From a virus, in the IMG/VR virus record IMGVR_UViG_3300025910_000025, positions 1 to 35,382 of that record: 35,382 nt of DNA; one strand, 5' to 3'. Made by a program: the position numbers and the translations under genes. The notes beneath the pieces were generated by a model, which was given only the letters and a program-made list of their open reading frames with translations, did not search any database and was not told where the DNA came from. Below, in pieces: positions 5,115 through 33,974 of the stretch (position 1 is its first letter; each line of letters starts with the position of its first letter).

Positions 5115-6012
5115 GAATCAAGCTCTGCATCACCCTTGCTAGTCCGTCGTAGACAGTAACGCTAGGATGATACCAGCGCAACATCTCTGAAGGGTCACAG
5201 AATCGAGAATGGACACCTTCAGGCTTGGACTCGTCGTTGACAATCTGCGGCGCGTAGCCTGCGATCTCGGCGGCCATCTTGGCGATCTCGACCATCTTGA
5301 TCGGGATGCCGGTCCCGATATTCATGGATTCGTAACCGTTCACGCCGCCCTTGACGCGGGCCATGGTGGCATTCACGAGGTCGCTGACATGGATCAGATC
5401 GCGGGACTGCTGACCTGAACCCCAGACAATTAGCGGATTCTCCTGGTTCAGTGCCCGCTTGCAGATAGCAGGGATCGGATAGGTTTCGGCCTGTCCCTCG
5501 CCGTAACCAGAGAAGGGCCGGATGCACAGCGTCGAGAGTCCGTACTTCGCGGCCTTCCAAGCGAGATATTCGCCCGTCAGCTTCGTGAAGCCGTACATCT
5601 CGTCAGGCGCGTACCACGCGGCGTTCTCTGGATTGAAGGCATCCTCCCTGAGCGCTTGACCTTTGGCTTTCTGGAGTGCGGCGCCATAGACCGCGCTCGA
5701 TGACGGGTAGATCGCCAACTTGGCGTGCTCAGAAGCCCAGCGAAAAAACGCAGCATCCAGTCTCAGGGAGTCCGCGTTGTACAGTGGATCGCCCTCGATC
5801 TTCTCCCGACCACCTACCAATGCCGCAAGGTGAATGGCGATGTCGAACTGGCGCCGCGAGCTTTCGTAGAACTCCTGGGCCTCGAAGTGATACACGCCCT
5901 CCGGCCGATCTACGGCAATGTCAAAGGCCACAATCTCGGCCTTGGCATCTTGGAAGTAGCGGAGGAAGTGTCTCCCTAGAAATCCAGCCGCGCCCGAGAT
6001 CAGGATTTTCAC
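5095..6012 (-). CDS. NAD(P)-dependent sugar epimerase/dehydratase (extended SDR)
   Basis: 305 aa from a GTG start with a TAGGAG Shine-Dalgarno about 6 nt upstream. The Rossmann motif GAAGFLG (7-13) and the acidic D31 after strand 2 bind NAD(P). SSSAVYG (about 104-110) supplies the catalytic Ser, and Y140-x3-K144 in MYGFTK is the catalytic pair. IRPFSGYGEG and SRDLIHVSDL are typical of NDP-sugar epimerases, reductases and GDP-fucose synthase-like enzymes. It probably makes the activated sugar used by neighbouring glycosyltransferases. The exact reaction is not deducible. Confidence 0.9.
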   Translation of the reverse strand: MKILISGAAGFLGRHFLRYFQDAKAEIVAFDIAVDRPEGVYHFEAQEFYESSRRQFDIAIHLAALVGGREKIEGDPLYNADSLRLDAAFFRWASEHAKLAIYPSSSAVYGAALQKAKGQALREDAFNPENAAWYAPDEMYGFTKLTGEYLAWKAAKYGLSTLCIRPFSGYGEGQAETYPIPAICKRALNQENPLIVWGSGQQSRDLIHVSDLVNATMARVKGGVNGYESMNIGTGIPIKMVEIAKMAAEIAGYAPQIVNDESKPEGVHSRFCDPSEMLRWYHPSVTVYDGLARVMQSLIRAHTTH

Positions 6013-6035
6013 GGCTGGCTCCTAGAATTGCGGGT

Positions 6036-6066
6036 GGGGGGCGGGCGGCCCACCACCGCGCCCCCC
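6036..6066 (-). terminator. GC-rich hairpin between the Ig-like and epimerase genes
   Basis: GGGGGGCG (6036-6043) and CGCCCCCC (6059-6066) form a perfect 8-bp stem with a 15-nt loop, starting 5 nt after the stop of the 106-aa gene. There is no U-tract on the minus strand, so it could be a weak terminator, an attenuator or an mRNA-processing/stability hairpin inside the operon. Confidence 0.5.
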
Positions 6067-6070
6067 ATGT

Positions 6071-6391
6071 TTAGCTGGCTGAGACGCTGGTGGAAGTCAC
6101 CGACTGGTCGTCAGCGGCAGTGAAAAGGGCCAGCGTCCACGTTCCTGCGGCGGGCAGAAGCACTCCGGGCCACTCGGCCGCGCCATCGGAATTGGTGCTG
6201 AACGTATTGCTCTTGAGGTCGTCCTGACCCGACAGGCTCAGCTTGAAGTAGTACAGAATCTCCGGCTCGGTTGGGTACGCAGACGCGTTGTACGAACCGG
6301 AATCGTTGTTGTCCGCATCGGTGCATGTGATTTTCAGCGAGGTCAGCTTCGCAACGATGCCAGAATCCGGGTCAGTAGTTAGGGTCGTCAT
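6071..6391 (-). CDS. Ig-like/beta-sandwich minor structural protein
   Basis: 106 aa, ATG start with GAGGAA 5 nt upstream. Thr/Ser-rich beta strands, an LYYFKLSLSGQDD centre and a closing AAGTWTLALFTAADD strand match a small Ig-like or carbohydrate-binding fold. It interrupts the run of sugar genes, with a glycosyltransferase upstream and the epimerase downstream. It might be a virion surface protein and even an acceptor of the glycan; that is inference. A stable GC hairpin follows its stop codon. Confidence 0.58.
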   Translation of the reverse strand: MTTLTTDPDSGIVAKLTSLKITCTDADNNDSGSYNASAYPTEPEILYYFKLSLSGQDDLKSNTFSTNSDGAAEWPGVLLPAAGTWTLALFTAADDQSVTSTSVSAS

Positions 6392-12621: not shown

Positions 12622-13449
12622 CTAGATTTCGGCGGCGAGACACGCGTCTCCCGATTCGGATAGAAGCCGCTTCACATCGGCGGTCTTCATCTTGAAGTTA
12701 CCGTTCTGGCCCCAGTCACCCCAGCTATTGCGGAACAGGTAGCCATCTTCGGCGTCGAGCTTGTCTAGGCACAGGAAGCAGTGACCGCCCTCGACCTGTC
12801 CGCTAATCTTGATCCAGCCGTTGGCGTCAGGACTGAACATGGACGTATACCAGTTGGTGCCGAAGACCACGCTGCTGTGATTATTCAGCCACTCATCGAC
12901 TTGACTCAGATCAGAGGCAAAGGCGTACGCAGCGAGTTTGCCACGATTCTTGACCGCCTTGGCTCCATCTCGGACGCTTGAGCCCTGCTGCCCGCCGCCC
13001 GGAGCATCTGGATCATCGGGAGAGCCGCCAATGATGGTCGATTCGTAGTAGATCGCTCGCGCCAGCGTCTCATCCACACCGGGGTCTTCGATGGGAGCCG
13101 CGGCAAGGAATCCGGCCCAGCCGTTCCCCACGCACGTCCCGTAGTTGCCCTGATCGAGTACTACGAGGTCGCGCCATGCTGGAACGTCAGTCGGGGTCGG
13201 CTTTGGCTTGCGATGCAGGATGTCCTTGATCCAGCGCCACAGTTGGAGTATTCCGTTCCACGTCGTGAAGAAAGGGCTGCCTTCATCAATCGCCTCCCGC
13301 ACCGTCTTGTCGAGGAGGGCATCATCGGGCTGCGGCGCCTTTTCCTTGGCCGCTTCCAATCGAGCGTGCAGTTTCTCGGGAGTCCAGTCGCGATCATCGG
13401 GGACGTTCGGTACGCGGCCCAATCTCACTTTCAAAGGATGGTCAGGCAT
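12622..13449 (-). CDS. Papain-like (C1A) cysteine peptidase
   Basis: 275 aa. The N terminus LGRVPNVPDDRDW matches the opening common in bacterial C1 peptidases. The catalytic set is complete: oxyanion Gln100 and nucleophile Cys106 in DQGNYGTCVGNGW, His223 in EGGHCFLC, and Asn241 in FRNSWGDWG. Residues 25-90 are a charged, helix-rich insert with KPKPTP that may be a propeptide or linker. No signal peptide, so it acts in the cytosol or in the virion. Its position downstream of portal makes a head-processing or virion-associated role possible, but C1 enzymes are not the usual phage prohead proteases. Confidence 0.9.
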   Translation of the reverse strand: MPDHPLKVRLGRVPNVPDDRDWTPEKLHARLEAAKEKAPQPDDALLDKTVREAIDEGSPFFTTWNGILQLWRWIKDILHRKPKPTPTDVPAWRDLVVLDQGNYGTCVGNGWAGFLAAAPIEDPGVDETLARAIYYESTIIGGSPDDPDAPGGGQQGSSVRDGAKAVKNRGKLAAYAFASDLSQVDEWLNNHSSVVFGTNWYTSMFSPDANGWIKISGQVEGGHCFLCLDKLDAEDGYLFRNSWGDWGQNGNFKMKTADVKRLLSESGDACLAAEI

Positions 13450-13759
13450 CGTGCTTCTCCAGTGTGCGGTGAATGGGCGGCTTTCCGTTCTCGGCCCACC
13501 AGTCGGCAGCTTCTTGGGCTAGGTCCCGATAGGCGAGTGGCATGTGCGGCGCAACGGTCCCGCCGAAGACCAGAATGTCGATTACCTGGTGGATCGCGTA
13601 GTGAGCCGTATCGCAGATCGTGACTCGCGGCGCCTGCGGCTGTCCTAGCTGAGAGGTCCATGATTCAGGGATGACGTGGTGCTGAACAGTGCGCCAGATT
13701 CGCGGCGAATGGTACTTATGGAGCGTACAGGGCGCCGCAGACGGATCGAGACTCAACAT
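13442..13759 (-). CDS. HNH-like zinc endonuclease-related protein
   Basis: 105 aa when started at the ATG at 13759, which has GAGGAG 5 nt upstream; a GTG one codon earlier is also possible, and a longer frame to 13798 lacks support. LHKYHSPR, VQHHVIPESW, a disordered loop, then TICDTAHYAIHQVIDIL follow the H-H...C-x-x-x-H-x-x-x-H order of small HNH proteins, in which HH and the last His form the beta-beta-alpha-metal site. The central Asn is not obvious. The 5' leader is preceded by a large hairpin domain (13781-13893). Ends by overlapping the C1 peptidase start. Confidence 0.6.
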   Translation of the reverse strand: MLSLDPSAAPCTLHKYHSPRIWRTVQHHVIPESWTSQLGQPQAPRVTICDTAHYAIHQVIDILVFGGTVAPHMPLAYRDLAQEAADWWAENGKPPIHRTLEKHDA

Positions 13760-13780
13760 CACGGCTCCTCTATGAAGTAA

Positions 13781-13893
13781 GGATCGGGCAGTTTCCACAG
13801 GGACGGCTTATGCGGATGTCTGGGTCCGAACCGAACCATAGCTCAGGCCCACGTCTGGACGGCACCCTTGGTAAGACGCCTACTGCCCGATCC
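13781..13893 (-). repeat. 12-bp inverted repeat closing a 113-nt domain
   Basis: Arms GGATCGGGCAGT (13781-13792) and ACTGCCCGATCC (13882-13893) are perfectly complementary. Inside, minus-strand GGTTCG-gtt-CGGACC and CGTCT...AGACG can form further hairpins. The domain ends 11 nt upstream of the Shine-Dalgarno of the 13442-13759 gene, so it is either the 3' domain of the structured RNA or a 5'UTR element of that gene. Confidence 0.75.
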
Positions 13894-14514
13894 TCTTGAA
13901 TTCGCAGGCTGGAATTGTTAGTTCCACTTTCGCCGCCCAGAGGTAGCGGACCTGCGAGTTAGGACGACCAACGACCGAGGATGCAGGCATGACTCTGCGG
14001 GCCGCGGGTCGTCCTATTCAATTGCGACGGGGAGCCGCTGGCACCTTTCGTCGCGGGAGACTTATCTTAGTTCGCCTACCAGCCCCAAAGCACTTGACTA
14101 AGCGTGCTCCTAAGTTAGCGGCGCCGCAAGTAGCGTGGAGACTCACCTGTGCCCAAGTGAAGTCGCTGCCCTTCTACATCACTGCCTGTACGGCGCCGCT
14201 ATTCATTGTCAGCCTACACCAGTCATCGGCCCATACGCGACTGTTCGGACCTAGACCACCTTCACCGAGCCTAGTCGCACTATCTCGGCAGCCTCCAACC
14301 ACCTTGGCTGACCTGCCCTGTCGGGCTTCACGGTGAGGACTGGCAGTTCCATCCTCATGTGGGCGGATTAGTCTGCCATCGCAGTACCGCTCTCCGCTGT
14401 TCATTAGGGGCTTGCGGGTTATCGCAGAAGTGGACAATGGTGAGATCACCCGCCTGCCGCTCGCCGCAAACCCCTATTCATTGCGCCAGACCGCCTCCGG
14501 TCTGCCGCGATAGC

Positions 14515-14542
14515 ATGATACCTACTAAGGCTCAGAAGTCAA
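14515..14542 (-). promoter_or_regulatory. Sigma70-like promoter for the structured RNA region
   Basis: On the minus strand, TTGACT (14542-14537), a 16-bp spacer and TATCAT (14520-14515) match 5/6 and 5/6 of the consensus. The -35 begins 4 nt after the HNH stop codon, and initiation about 7 nt beyond the -10 would place the first hairpin at the RNA 5' end. The decamer TATCATGCTA recurs at two other phage promoters (20670 and 34368). Confidence 0.7.
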
Positions 14543-14545
14543 GAA

Positions 14546-15268
14546 CTAATCCGTATGCTCATGCATCGGCTGAAACTCAATCCCCGCCGCACGCAGCAGC
14601 CCTTCCAGATAGACGATGTGCTCGCGTTCCTGCTTGCGGTGAAGTGTGATGTGCTGCGCCGCAGACAGCTTCACGAGATTCTCAGGCGCATCATTCGTCG
14701 GATCAGAGTCAATGTGGTGGATCACATTGCCTTGTGTGATTCTCTCATCAGGATGAGTCTCTTGCCAAACGATCCATGCTCGCGGGAAGTAGCGATGCCG
14801 TTCTACTGACCACAGTGATACTCGTCCAGTTTCAGGATCAGTCTTGATACCGCCTCGCCAATTAGGGGCTAGTTCACCGACCCGCCCGCGAGTCTTACCA
14901 GTCTTATCACTGGCATATAGACCCTGGCTAATACGAACACCCCAGTCGTGACTGCCACCCTTCTTGGTCGGCATCTTGTTTTGCCGGTAAGAGCGACGAG
15001 GAATGGCGTAATGGCTCAACCAGCGACGGACCATAGTTTGCGTCACATCGTAGTGCTCGGCCAATTCCCATGTGCTTTTCTGCTTGTACAGAGCAGCAAG
15101 TTCACCACGCGATGGAATGCCCTTCATCGGCGATAACTGCGCCAGCCAGAGTGAAACCGTGGTCTGGTGAACACCAAATCGTGCCGCGATCTGCGTCTGG
15201 CTCAGACCTTCCTCCACGTATAGCCGTCGCAATTCGTCTAGAGATGGTCTAACCTTTGGAGCGGACAT
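14546..15268 (-). CDS. HNH homing-type endonuclease with two N-terminal HTH motifs
   Basis: 240 aa, ATG with GAGGTG 7 nt upstream. Two helix-turn-helix units are visible: LSQTQIAARFGVHQTTVSLW (23-42) and TWELAEHYDVTQTMVRRWLS (about 66-85). A linker with GELAPNWRGGIKTD leads to an HNH module: HHIDSDPTNDAPENLVKLS, then AAQHITLH, with the HH pair, the Asn and the terminal His all present. A Lys/Arg-rich C terminus follows. Phage HNH homing enzymes often sit in introns or free-standing between genes. Here no split gene flanks it, so it is probably free-standing. It has its own promoter (15305-15333) and a structured non-coding region directly downstream. Confidence 0.88.
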   Translation of the reverse strand: MSAPKVRPSLDELRRLYVEEGLSQTQIAARFGVHQTTVSLWLAQLSPMKGIPSRGELAALYKQKSTWELAEHYDVTQTMVRRWLSHYAIPRRSYRQNKMPTKKGGSHDWGVRISQGLYASDKTGKTRGRVGELAPNWRGGIKTDPETGRVSLWSVERHRYFPRAWIVWQETHPDERITQGNVIHHIDSDPTNDAPENLVKLSAAQHITLHRKQEREHIVYLEGLLRAAGIEFQPMHEHTD

Positions 15269-15304
15269 CGAGTAGCACCTCTTTGCGTCTTTCCCAACGC
15301 TAGA

Positions 15305-15333
15305 AGTCTACTCGGTGTCCTTTCTCATGTCAA
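15305..15333 (-). promoter_or_regulatory. Promoter of the HNH endonuclease gene
   Basis: On the minus strand, a perfect -35 TTGACA (15333-15328), a 17-bp spacer and TAGACT (15310-15305) lie 37 bp upstream of the HNH start, in the 89-bp gap after the stop of the 162-aa gene. An independent promoter inside a long late operon is typical of an inserted cassette. Confidence 0.7.
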
Positions 15334-15357: not shown

Positions 15358-15846
15358 CTATGCCTCGTCGTACGAGCAGCTCACGGTCTCCTGGGTCCAG
15401 TTCCCCGGGCCGCAGGTCGCATCTACTTGCAGCTGGAATACCGCATATTTGGTCGTGGCCGCTGTGGCGCTGTACGAGCCCGAGTCCCACGTGAGCTTAT
15501 TGCCTGCGGTGAAGTTTACGAAGGTCGTGTTAGCGATGGTGCTGACGGTGGTGACGGGCGTGGTACCCGTGGTATAGGCACCTGTGACCATGAGGGTGGT
15601 GGAAGTCTGTACGGCGCCGTCGCCCCACAGCTTGAAGTTGCTCACGCTGTTGGCGGGTGCGGTATCCACCTTCATCTTGAGCCACTTCTCGTAGGAGTTG
15701 GTTCCTACCGTAATGGGGTTGGCCTGACGGTTGGCGAGGGAGTTCGTCGCGTTATCGGCGGACTCTAGGTCAATGCCTGTAACGACGGCTGACTCGGTAC
15801 CTGCGGCTGATCCGGTGTAGACACGAAATGACAAACTGGCGGCCAT
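15358..15846 (-). CDS. Putative minor structural protein after portal
   Basis: 162 aa, ATG start, 3 bp after the portal stop. The protein is Thr/Ser/Ala-rich and almost entirely predicted beta: SLSFRVYTGSAAGTESAVVT at the start, EKWLKMKVDTAPANSVSNFK in the middle and YAVFQLQVDATCGPGNW near the end. That resembles a single jellyroll or Ig-like virion protein. It is much too short and of the wrong composition for an HK97 major capsid protein, which would be expected in this area. The position right after portal supports a virion component. Confidence 0.6.
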   Translation of the reverse strand: MAASLSFRVYTGSAAGTESAVVTGIDLESADNATNSLANRQANPITVGTNSYEKWLKMKVDTAPANSVSNFKLWGDGAVQTSTTLMVTGAYTTGTTPVTTVSTIANTTFVNFTAGNKLTWDSGSYSATAATTKYAVFQLQVDATCGPGNWTQETVSCSYDEA

Positions 15847-31338: not shown

Positions 31339-31583
31339 ACAGAGGCGAGTTGTTCAAGCGGCCAATCCTGATCGAGATTCGCAGGCACCGAGGCCGGAAA
31401 CTTCTGTGGTCGGCGTTCCAAGCACCAGGTACCGATCTAGATTTCGGTCATGTACGATCTCTGATTCGCGGTCGCTACCGAGTGACGTGGACAGGATTCG
31501 GTCCTCGCGGCGGAAAACACCTGATCCAAGCAATGAACTTCGATGGGGATGTGGACCCAAACATCATGCGGGTCGATCTATGA
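31335..31583 (+). CDS. Hypothetical small basic protein
   Basis: 82 aa. RPILIEIRRHRGRKLLWSAF and VRSLIRGRYRVTWTGFGPRG are Arg-rich strands, and the end is NFDGDVDPNIMRVDL. Likely a beta-rich nucleic-acid-binding protein. Coupled by ATGA on both sides. No family is recognised. Confidence 0.5.
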   Translation: MNRGELFKRPILIEIRRHRGRKLLWSAFQAPGTDLDFGHVRSLIRGRYRVTWTGFGPRGGKHLIQAMNFDGDVDPNIMRVDL

Positions 31584-31777
31584 AAGGCGATTTGACGCCC
31601 CGTGAGATGGAAGTGCTGATGGCGGTTGCTCAGTACGAGAAGGCGGTCGAGGCCGCATACGAGCTGGGTATCTCCCGCCAGAGCGTAAAGAATCATCTGT
31701 ACGCCGCATACCAGAAGCTCGGCGTCAACAATGCCATCGCCGCCTTCAGAGAACTAGGCTGGCTCCAGGTTCCCTAA
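31580..31777 (+). CDS. LuxR/GerE-type HTH protein (HTH only)
   Basis: 65 aa from ATG 31580, overlapping the previous stop. LTPREMEVLMAVAQYEKAVE, then AAYELGISRQSVKNHLYAAY and QKLGVNNAIAAFRELG, are the helices of the LuxR/GerE C-terminal domain, including the LTPRE start, the S-x-x-S-V-K-N-H recognition helix and the K-L-G-V-x-N. There is no receiver or autoinducer domain. Last gene of the early operon. It probably acts as a small transcription regulator of phage or host promoters. Confidence 0.8.
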   Translation: MKGDLTPREMEVLMAVAQYEKAVEAAYELGISRQSVKNHLYAAYQKLGVNNAIAAFRELGWLQVP

Positions 31778-31786
31778 TCGTTGCGG

Positions 31787-31810
31787 GCCGTGATCTGCGG
31801 CTCTCTTTTT
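31787..31810 (+). terminator. Terminator of the rightward operon
   Basis: GCCG (31787-31790), a 7-nt loop and CGGC (31798-31801), followed by TCTCTTTTT, 9 nt after the stop of the LuxR-type gene. The stem is short but the U-tract is good. It ends the plus-strand operon at the convergent junction. Confidence 0.6.
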
Positions 31811-31814
31811 ACCC

Positions 31815-31981
31815 CCAACTAGTCCACCCAACTAGCGCCCCTACGGGGGGCGCAATAGGTGGTTGGTTTGACCAGAACAACTAGTTGGCAACTAGTTGGG
31901 AGCCACCGATCTAGCAGGAACAATCACATTCACAACGGAATCCGTGGAATCAGTAGGGCAAATCGCCGCCCAACTAGTTGG
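31815..31981. repeat. CCAACTAGTTGG palindrome array; candidate origin or operators
   Basis: Five copies of a CCAACTAGTTGG element. The intact 12-bp palindrome is at 31970-31981; CAACTAGTTGG is at 31878-31888 and CAACTAGTTGGG at 31889-31900; partial copies CCAACTAGTCC and CCAACTAG lie at 31815-31825 and 31828-31835. Two intact copies abut. The last overlaps the stop codon of the primase-helicase gene. A GC hairpin (31835-31853) lies inside. Repeated palindromes next to a replication gene are typical of origin iterons or repressor operators; which applies is not known. Confidence 0.65.
31835..31853. terminator. GC-rich hairpin at convergent gene ends
   Basis: GCGCCCC-tacgg-GGGGCGC: 7-bp stem, 5-nt loop, between the rightward terminator and the leftward primase-helicase stop. 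There is no U-tract on either side. It could help end the leftward transcript or be part of the repeat array. Confidence 0.45.
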
Positions 31982-33974
31982 TCCCTGAACCGTCGCTCAT
32001 GTTTCCCCAACGATACTTGCGGTCGGGCGTGTAGAACTTCACGAATACCTTGCCTTCGCCGCCATTCAGGGTGTTACGCACCGCCTGGATTCCTGACGGC
32101 CCCTCGTAGCCAAGCTCCTCGGCGATCTCGTGGACTAGAAGTGCCCCATCCGAGAGTAGAGACTTGATCCGCTCGCGCATCGATGCCTTGGATTGAAGCT
32201 GCGGCACGTTGCGAAGGTCGGTGACAACGATAGTGGTGCGCTCTGCTGCAAAGGTGACTTTGTAGGCAATGTCTCTGAATCGCGGCCCGAGATTGTTCTT
32301 GCGGTTGAACAGGCCGACTGTCATCTCTGGCGAGTCTGCTTCCTGCGTGTTCTTCACGTACCAGGTGCGGCGCGCGAGGTTGTGGTAGAACGCCGAGCCA
32401 AACGGCTTCTGATCGTCCTGCGCTTTGGTGTTATGGGCTGTGCAGATGATCGGCACTTCGAGACGGCGTTGAGCGGCAAAGAATTCATCGGCGGTCGATT
32501 GTTCGTTGGCGTCACCACCCGATGCAGGGGCCAGCGAATCCACGGCGATGAGGCCGATGCGTTCATCTCGAACAATGGGGCGCAGTTGATCCACTGACTG
32601 CGCCAGTGAGCGCGACATGCGTAGGTAGAGCATGTCCGATTCCTCACCGAGCAACCGGCGCATTCGATCACGATGCACCCAGTCTTCATCCTCCCAGTCG
32701 AGATACAGGACTCGGAGTTGAACCGAAGGAATGTAGCCGAGCAGGTCATAGCCAGTGTGAATCGAAAGGGCCATGGCTTGGATGATCTGAGACTTGCCGC
32801 TTCCCCCATCCCCAAAGAAGATCGTCACGCCAGAGGGCGAGATGAGCGGGCCGAGCAGATCGACCTGTGATGGCGGCTCAGGTGCTTGGTTGAGTGGCAC
32901 TGGTTGATTACCTCGCCGATGAGCTGTCAATGCTCGCAGCGATGACCATTCGATCATCTCGTCCCAGGCTATGTCTGCTGGAGCGGTTCGTTTGCCAAGC
33001 GCATTGGCGAGTGTCGCCTTGGCGAGCGTGCTCAGGAGATTGAGTCGTGACTTGTGGAGTGGTTCCGTGGCTCCGCCGACATAGATCGTGATCTCCGAGA
33101 ACGTTTCGCCATGGGAATCAGTGCGGATCAGGTCGAACTCAATGCGAACGTCCTGCGCTTCAAAGGCAGCCGTATGAATTTCGTGGTCGGTGGTGAACGA
33201 TCTTCCGATCTGGATGATCGTTGCCGCGGCGACTAGAGCTTCAACAGCCGCGGCCCCTTCGATCCCGACGAGATCAGCGGCACCAGCTTTGGGCGGCGCT
33301 GTCGTCCAGCGGATCAGCTTCACTTCGGCCGCGACTCCACGTAATGCCTTGGCAACTCGCTGCATATGCTCCACACCGGGCTGATCGTTGTCAGGCCATA
33401 GCAGAACGTTGCGGCCACGGAGCACGGAGAGCGGACCCTCGCTTGGAGTGGAGGCGGCTCCGGTTACGGTTGCCAACGCCGCGAAATCGTGCGAGATAAG
33501 AGCGTCGGCGTCCTTCTCACCCTCAGTGACGATGAGGCTTTCGTCCTTCTCCCAAAGGCTCATGCGCTCGCTGCCGTACAGCGGAAGATCGGCGGCCTTG
33601 ATACCTCCCAAACCGATCTGTCCGTTGGGCTGGCGCCATGAGAACTTCTTGCCTGGATCGGTGCGGACGTGGATTGCTACCAGCGTTCCGGCTCCGTCCT
33701 TGATCTGGTAGTTGATGGTGTGTTCGGCGTAGCCATTCGTCGGTGGGAAAAAGTCCGTGCTGTTCATGCCCATTGCGTCCACGATGGCAGCAAACTGGCA
33801 TCCGAAGTGGCAATAGACCAGTGCTTTGCCTTCGGGACCGACGCTAACGCTCAGGGACTGACGATGATCGTCGTGAGCCGGACAACGAGCCGCCCATTCA
33901 CTGCCAGAACGCCTGACACCTTCGAGGTGATTGAGGACTTGGATGACTGGCTCAGAAGGGAGCGGCTGATTCAT
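31974..33974 (-). CDS. Primase-helicase: zinc finger, Toprim and RecA-like ATPase domains, winged-helix end
   Basis: 666 aa, ATG overlapping the upstream 53-aa gene (ATGA). C31-x2-H34...C55-x3-C59 is a CHC2-type zinc finger for template recognition. Toprim motifs are LIVTEGEKDADAL (catalytic E151) and LLWPDNDQPG (D195, D197). Residues about 200-375 are not assigned. A RecA/RepA-like ATPase follows with Walker A GDGGSGKS (388-395), YLDWEDED, Walker B LIAVDSL (475-481) and a GSAFYHNLAR sensor region. About 605-640 (LVHEIAEELGYEGPSGIQAV) is a winged-helix-like end. It should prime and unwind at the replication fork. Confidence 0.87.
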   Translation of the reverse strand: MNQPLPSEPVIQVLNHLEGVRRSGSEWAARCPAHDDHRQSLSVSVGPEGKALVYCHFGCQFAAIVDAMGMNSTDFFPPTNGYAEHTINYQIKDGAGTLVAIHVRTDPGKKFSWRQPNGQIGLGGIKAADLPLYGSERMSLWEKDESLIVTEGEKDADALISHDFAALATVTGAASTPSEGPLSVLRGRNVLLWPDNDQPGVEHMQRVAKALRGVAAEVKLIRWTTAPPKAGAADLVGIEGAAAVEALVAAATIIQIGRSFTTDHEIHTAAFEAQDVRIEFDLIRTDSHGETFSEITIYVGGATEPLHKSRLNLLSTLAKATLANALGKRTAPADIAWDEMIEWSSLRALTAHRRGNQPVPLNQAPEPPSQVDLLGPLISPSGVTIFFGDGGSGKSQIIQAMALSIHTGYDLLGYIPSVQLRVLYLDWEDEDWVHRDRMRRLLGEESDMLYLRMSRSLAQSVDQLRPIVRDERIGLIAVDSLAPASGGDANEQSTADEFFAAQRRLEVPIICTAHNTKAQDDQKPFGSAFYHNLARRTWYVKNTQEADSPEMTVGLFNRKNNLGPRFRDIAYKVTFAAERTTIVVTDLRNVPQLQSKASMRERIKSLLSDGALLVHEIAEELGYEGPSGIQAVRNTLNGGEGKVFVKFYTPDRKYRWGNMSDGSGTN

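What the first reader, a model, noticed from the sequence alone, without database searches (positions are those of the whole stretch)
13760..15333. HNH endonuclease plus a 786-nt structured non-coding region, each with its own promoter
Seen in sequence: an HNH gene with a TTGACA-17-TAGACT promoter, followed 4 nt after its stop by a second promoter (TTGACT-16-TATCAT). Then come about 786 nt without a supportable ORF, rich in perfect or near-perfect inverted repeats with at least one 9-nt long-range pair over 400 nt. This lies between structural genes where phage genes normally abut. Known precedents for large phage RNAs (GOLLD, ROOL) and for HNH-associated RNAs (HEARO, group I introns) make a large ncRNA plausible. 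I recognise none of their signature motifs, so it may be a new RNA class or a mobile HNH-RNA cassette.
Basis: partly seen in the sequence, partly recalled or inferred. Interest (0 to 1): 0.82.

Follow-up and report, generated by a model that had tools for sequence, protein, structure and literature searches.

The report
New large structured phage RNA
Two uncultured phages carry related, elaborately folded RNA genes that code for no protein and match no known RNA family; the DNA-cutting enzyme gene beside one of them is an unrelated, independently mobile neighbour.

Summary
About 783 nt (minus strand, 14545 to 13763) between an HTH+HNH gene and a 106-aa gene have no coding signal. They fold better than shuffles (z about -3.5) and better than the opposite strand, are rich in inverted repeats (11 perfect 9-mer pairs; shuffles 1.4), begin at a sigma-70-like promoter, and match no Rfam family even at E<=5. 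A second phage (L004; portal 72%, neighbouring 162-aa protein 87% identical) has a shorter (~365 nt) noncoding segment at the same site. It shares two hairpins and linker motifs (local alignment score 45; 300 shuffles mean 23.8, maximum 34.5). Three stem pairs change on both sides and stay paired. With two members this is suggestive, not statistical, covariation.

I read this as a lineage-specific large structured phage RNA, comparable in kind to GOLLD/ROOL but in neither family, with a homing-type endonuclease inserted upstream. Function is unproven: a free or processed structural RNA, or a cis-acting leader of the downstream genes, since no terminator separates them.

The parts
13763..14545 (-). 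Noncoding structured region; presumed RNA from about 14508 to at least 13776
   Evidence: No coding signal; fold z -3.5 to -3.8; homologous RNA in L004; no Rfam match
14515..14542 (-). Promoter-like site TTGACT-16-TATCAT of the RNA
   Evidence: by eye L004 has TTGACT-17-TAAGGT ahead of the same ATCGCGGC start, but the tool's stricter rule does not list it
14483..14508 (-). 5' hairpin GCGGCAGACC..GGUCUGGCGC
14404..14480 (-). Module A: UGAA-UAG[13-bp stem]CUA-A; shared with L004, two closing pairs changed on both sides
14356..14402 (-). Module B: UGAACAGCGG .. CCGCCCACAU, flanks shared with L004
14114..14207 (-). Module 2: AAUGAA-UAG[13-bp stem CGGCGCCG]CUA-AC; no counterpart found in L004
13954..14025 (-). 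Module C: UUGAA-UAG[stem GGACGACC]..GGCCCGCAG..CUGCA..UCGGU..CUA-AC; inner part shared with L004
13779..13895 (-). Terminal domain closed by a long hairpin (GGAUCGGGCAGU/ACUGCCCGAUCC); no U-tract follows
14243..14256 (-). 5' arm of 14-nt long-range pair (possible pseudoknot)
   Evidence: chance rate about 4/60 shuffles
13818..13831 (-). 3' arm of the long-range pair, inside the terminal hairpin domain
14546..15268 (-). HTH+HNH endonuclease gene, probably a homing-type insertion, not part of the RNA system
   Evidence: low codon score 0.064; homologues at same site in 7 sister phages
15305..15333 (-). Promoter-like site of the HNH gene
15358..15846 (-). 162-aa gene upstream (unknown function; conserved marker of the phage group)
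13442..13762 (-). 106-aa gene that starts (GTG) right after the RNA region; HNH-like residues by eye, no family match
   Evidence: only in this phage
12622..13449 (-). Peptidase gene
   Evidence: phrog_16701 E 1e-26

Best explanation
The region encodes a lineage-specific, modular structured RNA of up to about 750 nt. It is read on the minus strand from its own promoter at 14542-14515. It folds into a series of hairpin modules, three of them closed by the same UGAA-UAG...CUA-A(C/U) motif, plus a terminal domain that may dock back by a 13-bp long-range pair. A 365-nt relative with two of the modules sits at the same place in another phage. Shown by computation: no coding signal, excess structure on this strand, positional and sequence homology of the RNA in two phages, separability from HNH. 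Inferred: that it is transcribed, and that it works as a structural RNA (RNA scaffold or RNA-only complex, by analogy with GOLLD/ROOL) made late in infection, either free or cut from the leader of the downstream peptidase/glycosyltransferase transcript. The HNH gene is a separate homing-type insertion between the 162-aa gene and the RNA promoter.
For: No coding signal. Excess inverted repeats, and [A/U]UGAAUAG three times in the region and nowhere else in 35 kb on either strand. Fold z -3.5 (window) and -3.6 (L004), with the sense strand 25 and 18 kcal/mol more stable than the antisense. Homologous shorter RNA between corresponding genes of L004, alignment score far above shuffles. Modules A and C pair in both, with three two-sided and three one-sided changes that keep pairing. 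Promoter. No Rfam match at E<=5 in the window, only an irrelevant sub-threshold hit in L004. Sister phages have other RNAs (a conserved leader plus a tRNA) at this same junction.
Against: Only two independent members; the third contig (L002/L088) is identical over 4.3 kb and adds nothing. With two sequences the pair counts are not significant against dealt-out letters (123 and 252 of 500 shuffles reach them). The opposite strand of the window also folds well (z -3.4). No expression data. No terminator between the RNA and the next gene. The 3' 560 nt of the window RNA, apart from module C, have no relative, so their folds are single-sequence predictions.
Confidence: 0.55

Rival explanations
1. 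A cis-acting leader: the RNA is the long 5' untranslated part of the mRNA for the downstream peptidase and glycosyltransferase/sugar genes. It controls them by antitermination or by folding around the ribosome-binding site, and has no separate life.
For: Same strand, RNA ends 10-20 nt before the next gene's GTG/ATG in both phages; no terminator between; different RNAs (with terminators) sit ahead of the same glycosyltransferase gene in L104 and L107.
Against: 750 nt is very long for a leader; the next gene differs between the two phages (106 aa / 275-aa peptidase against a 309-aa gene), so a fixed cis target is not conserved; most sister phages have no such leader.
Confidence: 0.3
2. A DNA element (origin, packaging or recombination site) whose inverted repeats act as DNA, with RNA folding a by-product.
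For: Rich inverted repeats including palindromes; both strands fold in the window.
Against: Sense strand folds distinctly better in both phages, with G-U/G-C exchanges; promoter at its edge; size differs twofold between relatives.
Confidence: 0.08
3. An HNH-RNA unit: a HEARO/IsrB-like RNA-guided nuclease or an intron-like mobile element moving with the HNH gene.
For: Adjacent and each with a promoter.
Against: RNA without HNH in L004; HNH homologues without RNA in seven phages; no RuvC domain; no HEARO or group I/II intron match; the RNA lies between genes, not inside one.
Confidence: 0.03
4. Decayed sequence: a dead gene or old insertion with chance structure.
For: Junction after the 162-aa gene is a hot spot for insertions.
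Against: Homology to L004 kept in loops, linkers and pairing while the flanking genes have diverged to 72-87% protein identity.
Confidence: 0.04

Closest known systems
GOLLD RNA (Rfam)
   Same: Large (many over 800 nt), phage-encoded, intricate fold, variable in size with one better conserved part, unknown function, often near tRNA genes (PMC12286853); sister phages have tRNA genes at this junction
   Different: No GOLLD match even at E<=5; no tRNA in this window; only two members
ROOL RNA (Rfam)
   Same: Large ornate phage RNA, multi-helix with pseudoknots, forms RNA-only cages (PMC12286853)
   Different: No match; no evidence here of oligomers
HEARO RNA with IsrB (OMEGA nickase)
   Same: HNH gene beside a structured RNA
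   Different: No match; HNH protein here is HTH+HNH, 240 aa, no RuvC; RNA and HNH occur apart
Phage HNH homing endonucleases (PHROG 7545 and others)
   Same: The neighbouring HNH gene fits: HTH + HNH, foreign codon usage, recurrent at one site
   Different: Concerns the neighbour, not the RNA

Membership tests
GOLLD | Match to the Rfam covariance model | tested here: not met
   nothing at gathering score or E<=5
GOLLD | Phage-borne, near tRNA genes, around 800 nt | tested here: inconclusive
   phage and size yes; no tRNA in the window, tRNAs at the same junction in sister phages
ROOL | Match to the Rfam covariance model | tested here: not met
GOLLD/ROOL-type ornate RNA | Self-assembly into RNA-only multimers | not testable with these tools
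   needs native gel or cryo-EM
HEARO/IsrB | Match to HEARO model | tested here: not met
HEARO/IsrB | Associated protein with RuvC and HNH domains | tested here: not met
   HTH and HNH only
Group I or II intron | Conserved catalytic core (Rfam models) interrupting a gene | tested here: not met
   no match; region lies between intact genes
HNH homing endonuclease (neighbour gene) | HNH domain with DNA-binding HTH, recurrent insertion at one site | tested here: met
HNH homing endonuclease (neighbour gene) | Cleavage of the HNH-free allele | not testable with these tools
   needs an enzyme assay

The most novel reading that the evidence does not exclude
A new class of large phage RNA built from repeated UGAA-UAG...CUA-A modules that acts as an RNA-only machine or cage during late infection, unrelated by sequence to GOLLD, ROOL or OLE.
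Probability: 0.25. Interest if true: 0.8.

Novelty: new variant of a known kind. Interest (0 to 1): 0.52.

Why it matters
Large ornate phage RNAs are few, and their jobs are unknown. A further candidate class in phages with no cultured relative found, with a compact 365-nt relative and a repeated closing motif, would give a small natural minimal version to fold, image and delete. It also shows that one phage genome junction repeatedly acquires different structured RNAs, tRNAs and homing endonucleases.

Tried and rejected
Rfam at gathering and relaxed thresholds: no family. Blastn in 50,697 phage records: nothing. Covariance model from two members over 91 sources, plus 21 whole viral records: no third member. 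HNH-RNA cassette: rejected. Terminase- and portal-based collection: no extra homologue. The long-range pair as independent proof: dropped, because shuffles give one in about 7%. Internal duplication of modules by sequence: only the short linker motif recurs. Homology of the sister-phage RNA leaders to this RNA: not significant.

Full report
Setting. The window is a 35,382-base virus record. On the minus strand the late genes run terminase, portal (Pfam E 6e-24), a 162-aa protein of unknown function, the HTH+HNH gene (14546-15268), the noncoding region (14545-13763), a 106-aa gene, a peptidase, and then glycosyltransferase, methyltransferase, aminotransferase and epimerase genes. The nearest named phages are remote (portal 20-28% identical), and the 162-aa protein has no match among 50,697 phage records.

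Observation. Both promoter-like sites exist. Reading frames inside the region look like non-coding frames by codon usage. Perfect 9-nt inverted repeats number 11 against 1.4 in shuffles, and [A/T]TGAATAG occurs three times, all in this region and nowhere else in 35 kb on either strand. The region folds at z about -3.5 to -3.8. In 200-nt windows it is not exceptional throughout (best -3.8, some windows near 0), and one coding window of 750 nt reaches -3.4. Folding energy alone would therefore not carry the claim. The 14-nt long-range pair is real and energetically favourable (duplex -20.5 against about 10 kcal/mol to free the arms), but as good a pair is found in 4 of 60 shuffles.

Homologue. 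Searching with portal and then with the 162-aa protein brought in sister phages. One of them, L004 (70.7 kb contig), has a 365-nt noncoding stretch directly after the 162-aa gene and before a 309-aa gene, with no HNH gene. Its fold is also better than shuffles (z -4.2; -3.6 for the presumed transcript). The window and L004 regions align with a local score of 45, against 23.8 +/- 3.4 and a maximum of 34.5 in 300 shuffles. Shared pieces are TTGCGGCGAGCG...TGCGA...CCCGCAAGCCC (module A), TGAA(C/T)AGCGG...CGCCCACAT (flanks of module B) and TTGAATAG...GCGGCCCGCAG..CAT..CTGCA....TCGGT (module C). The order differs: L004 lacks the window's module 2 and terminal domain, and its module C follows module A directly. 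The RNA therefore looks modular.

Pairing. In module A, 12 of 13 pairs form in both sequences, with two pairs changed on both sides and one on one side. In module C, 12 of 14 pairs form in both, with one pair changed on both sides (C-G to G-U) and two on one side. Sliding the partners removes most of the pairing, but with two sequences the shuffle control is not significant. The sense strand folds 25 kcal/mol (window) and 18 kcal/mol (L004) better than the antisense, as expected if G-U pairs matter.

HNH. Homologues of the HNH protein (42-50% identical over the matched part) lie 27 to 133 nt after the 162-aa gene in seven sister phages. None has a match to the RNA model, although several of those contigs end within 400-1,900 nt. 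L004 has RNA without HNH. The HNH gene's codon usage is atypical for this phage (0.064 against 0.10-0.29). The parsimonious reading is a homing-type endonuclease that repeatedly settled after the 162-aa gene. This is inference; no cleavage was shown.

What it is. No Rfam family fits. GOLLD and ROOL are the closest in kind: phage-borne, large, ornate, of unknown function (PMC12286853). I commit to a structural phage RNA, free or processed. The strongest rival is a cis-acting leader, because no terminator separates the RNA from the next gene in either phage. Against the leader reading, the next gene is not the same in the two phages.

Limits. The class rests on two independent members. The 3' part of the window RNA outside module C is a single-sequence prediction. 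Expression is not shown.

Noticed in passing
L104:5575-5705, L107:1205-1325, L128:5540-5670: Sister phages carry, at the same junction after the 162-aa gene, a different conserved RNA-like leader (hairpin, then AUAAGGCG..CGCCAGCGGCAA) followed by a tRNA gene (tRNA-Gln in L104 and L107; incomplete call in L128) and, in L104 and L107, a good terminator. Six leader pairs show two-sided changes, but the alignment is poor at its 3' side.
   Followed up: partly
L104:5780-5980: About 200 nt of further noncoding, inverted-repeat-like sequence lies between the tRNA-Gln and the terminator; no similarity to the window RNA beyond chance.
   Followed up: partly
window 13442-13762: 106-aa protein with an HHVIP...CDTAHYAIH pattern reminiscent of HNH-fold nucleases, but no Pfam or PHROG match, and found only in this phage.
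   Followed up: partly
window 31440-32226: Highest count of perfect 9-nt inverted repeats in the window (15); it spans the gap between convergent genes ending at 31777 and 31974, probably a two-way terminator.
   Followed up: no
window 5883-6082: Strongest local fold on the minus strand (z -5.4), with a GC-rich hairpin (GGGGGGCG..CGCCCCCC-like) between genes at 6013-6070, terminator-like but without a clear U-tract.
   Followed up: partly
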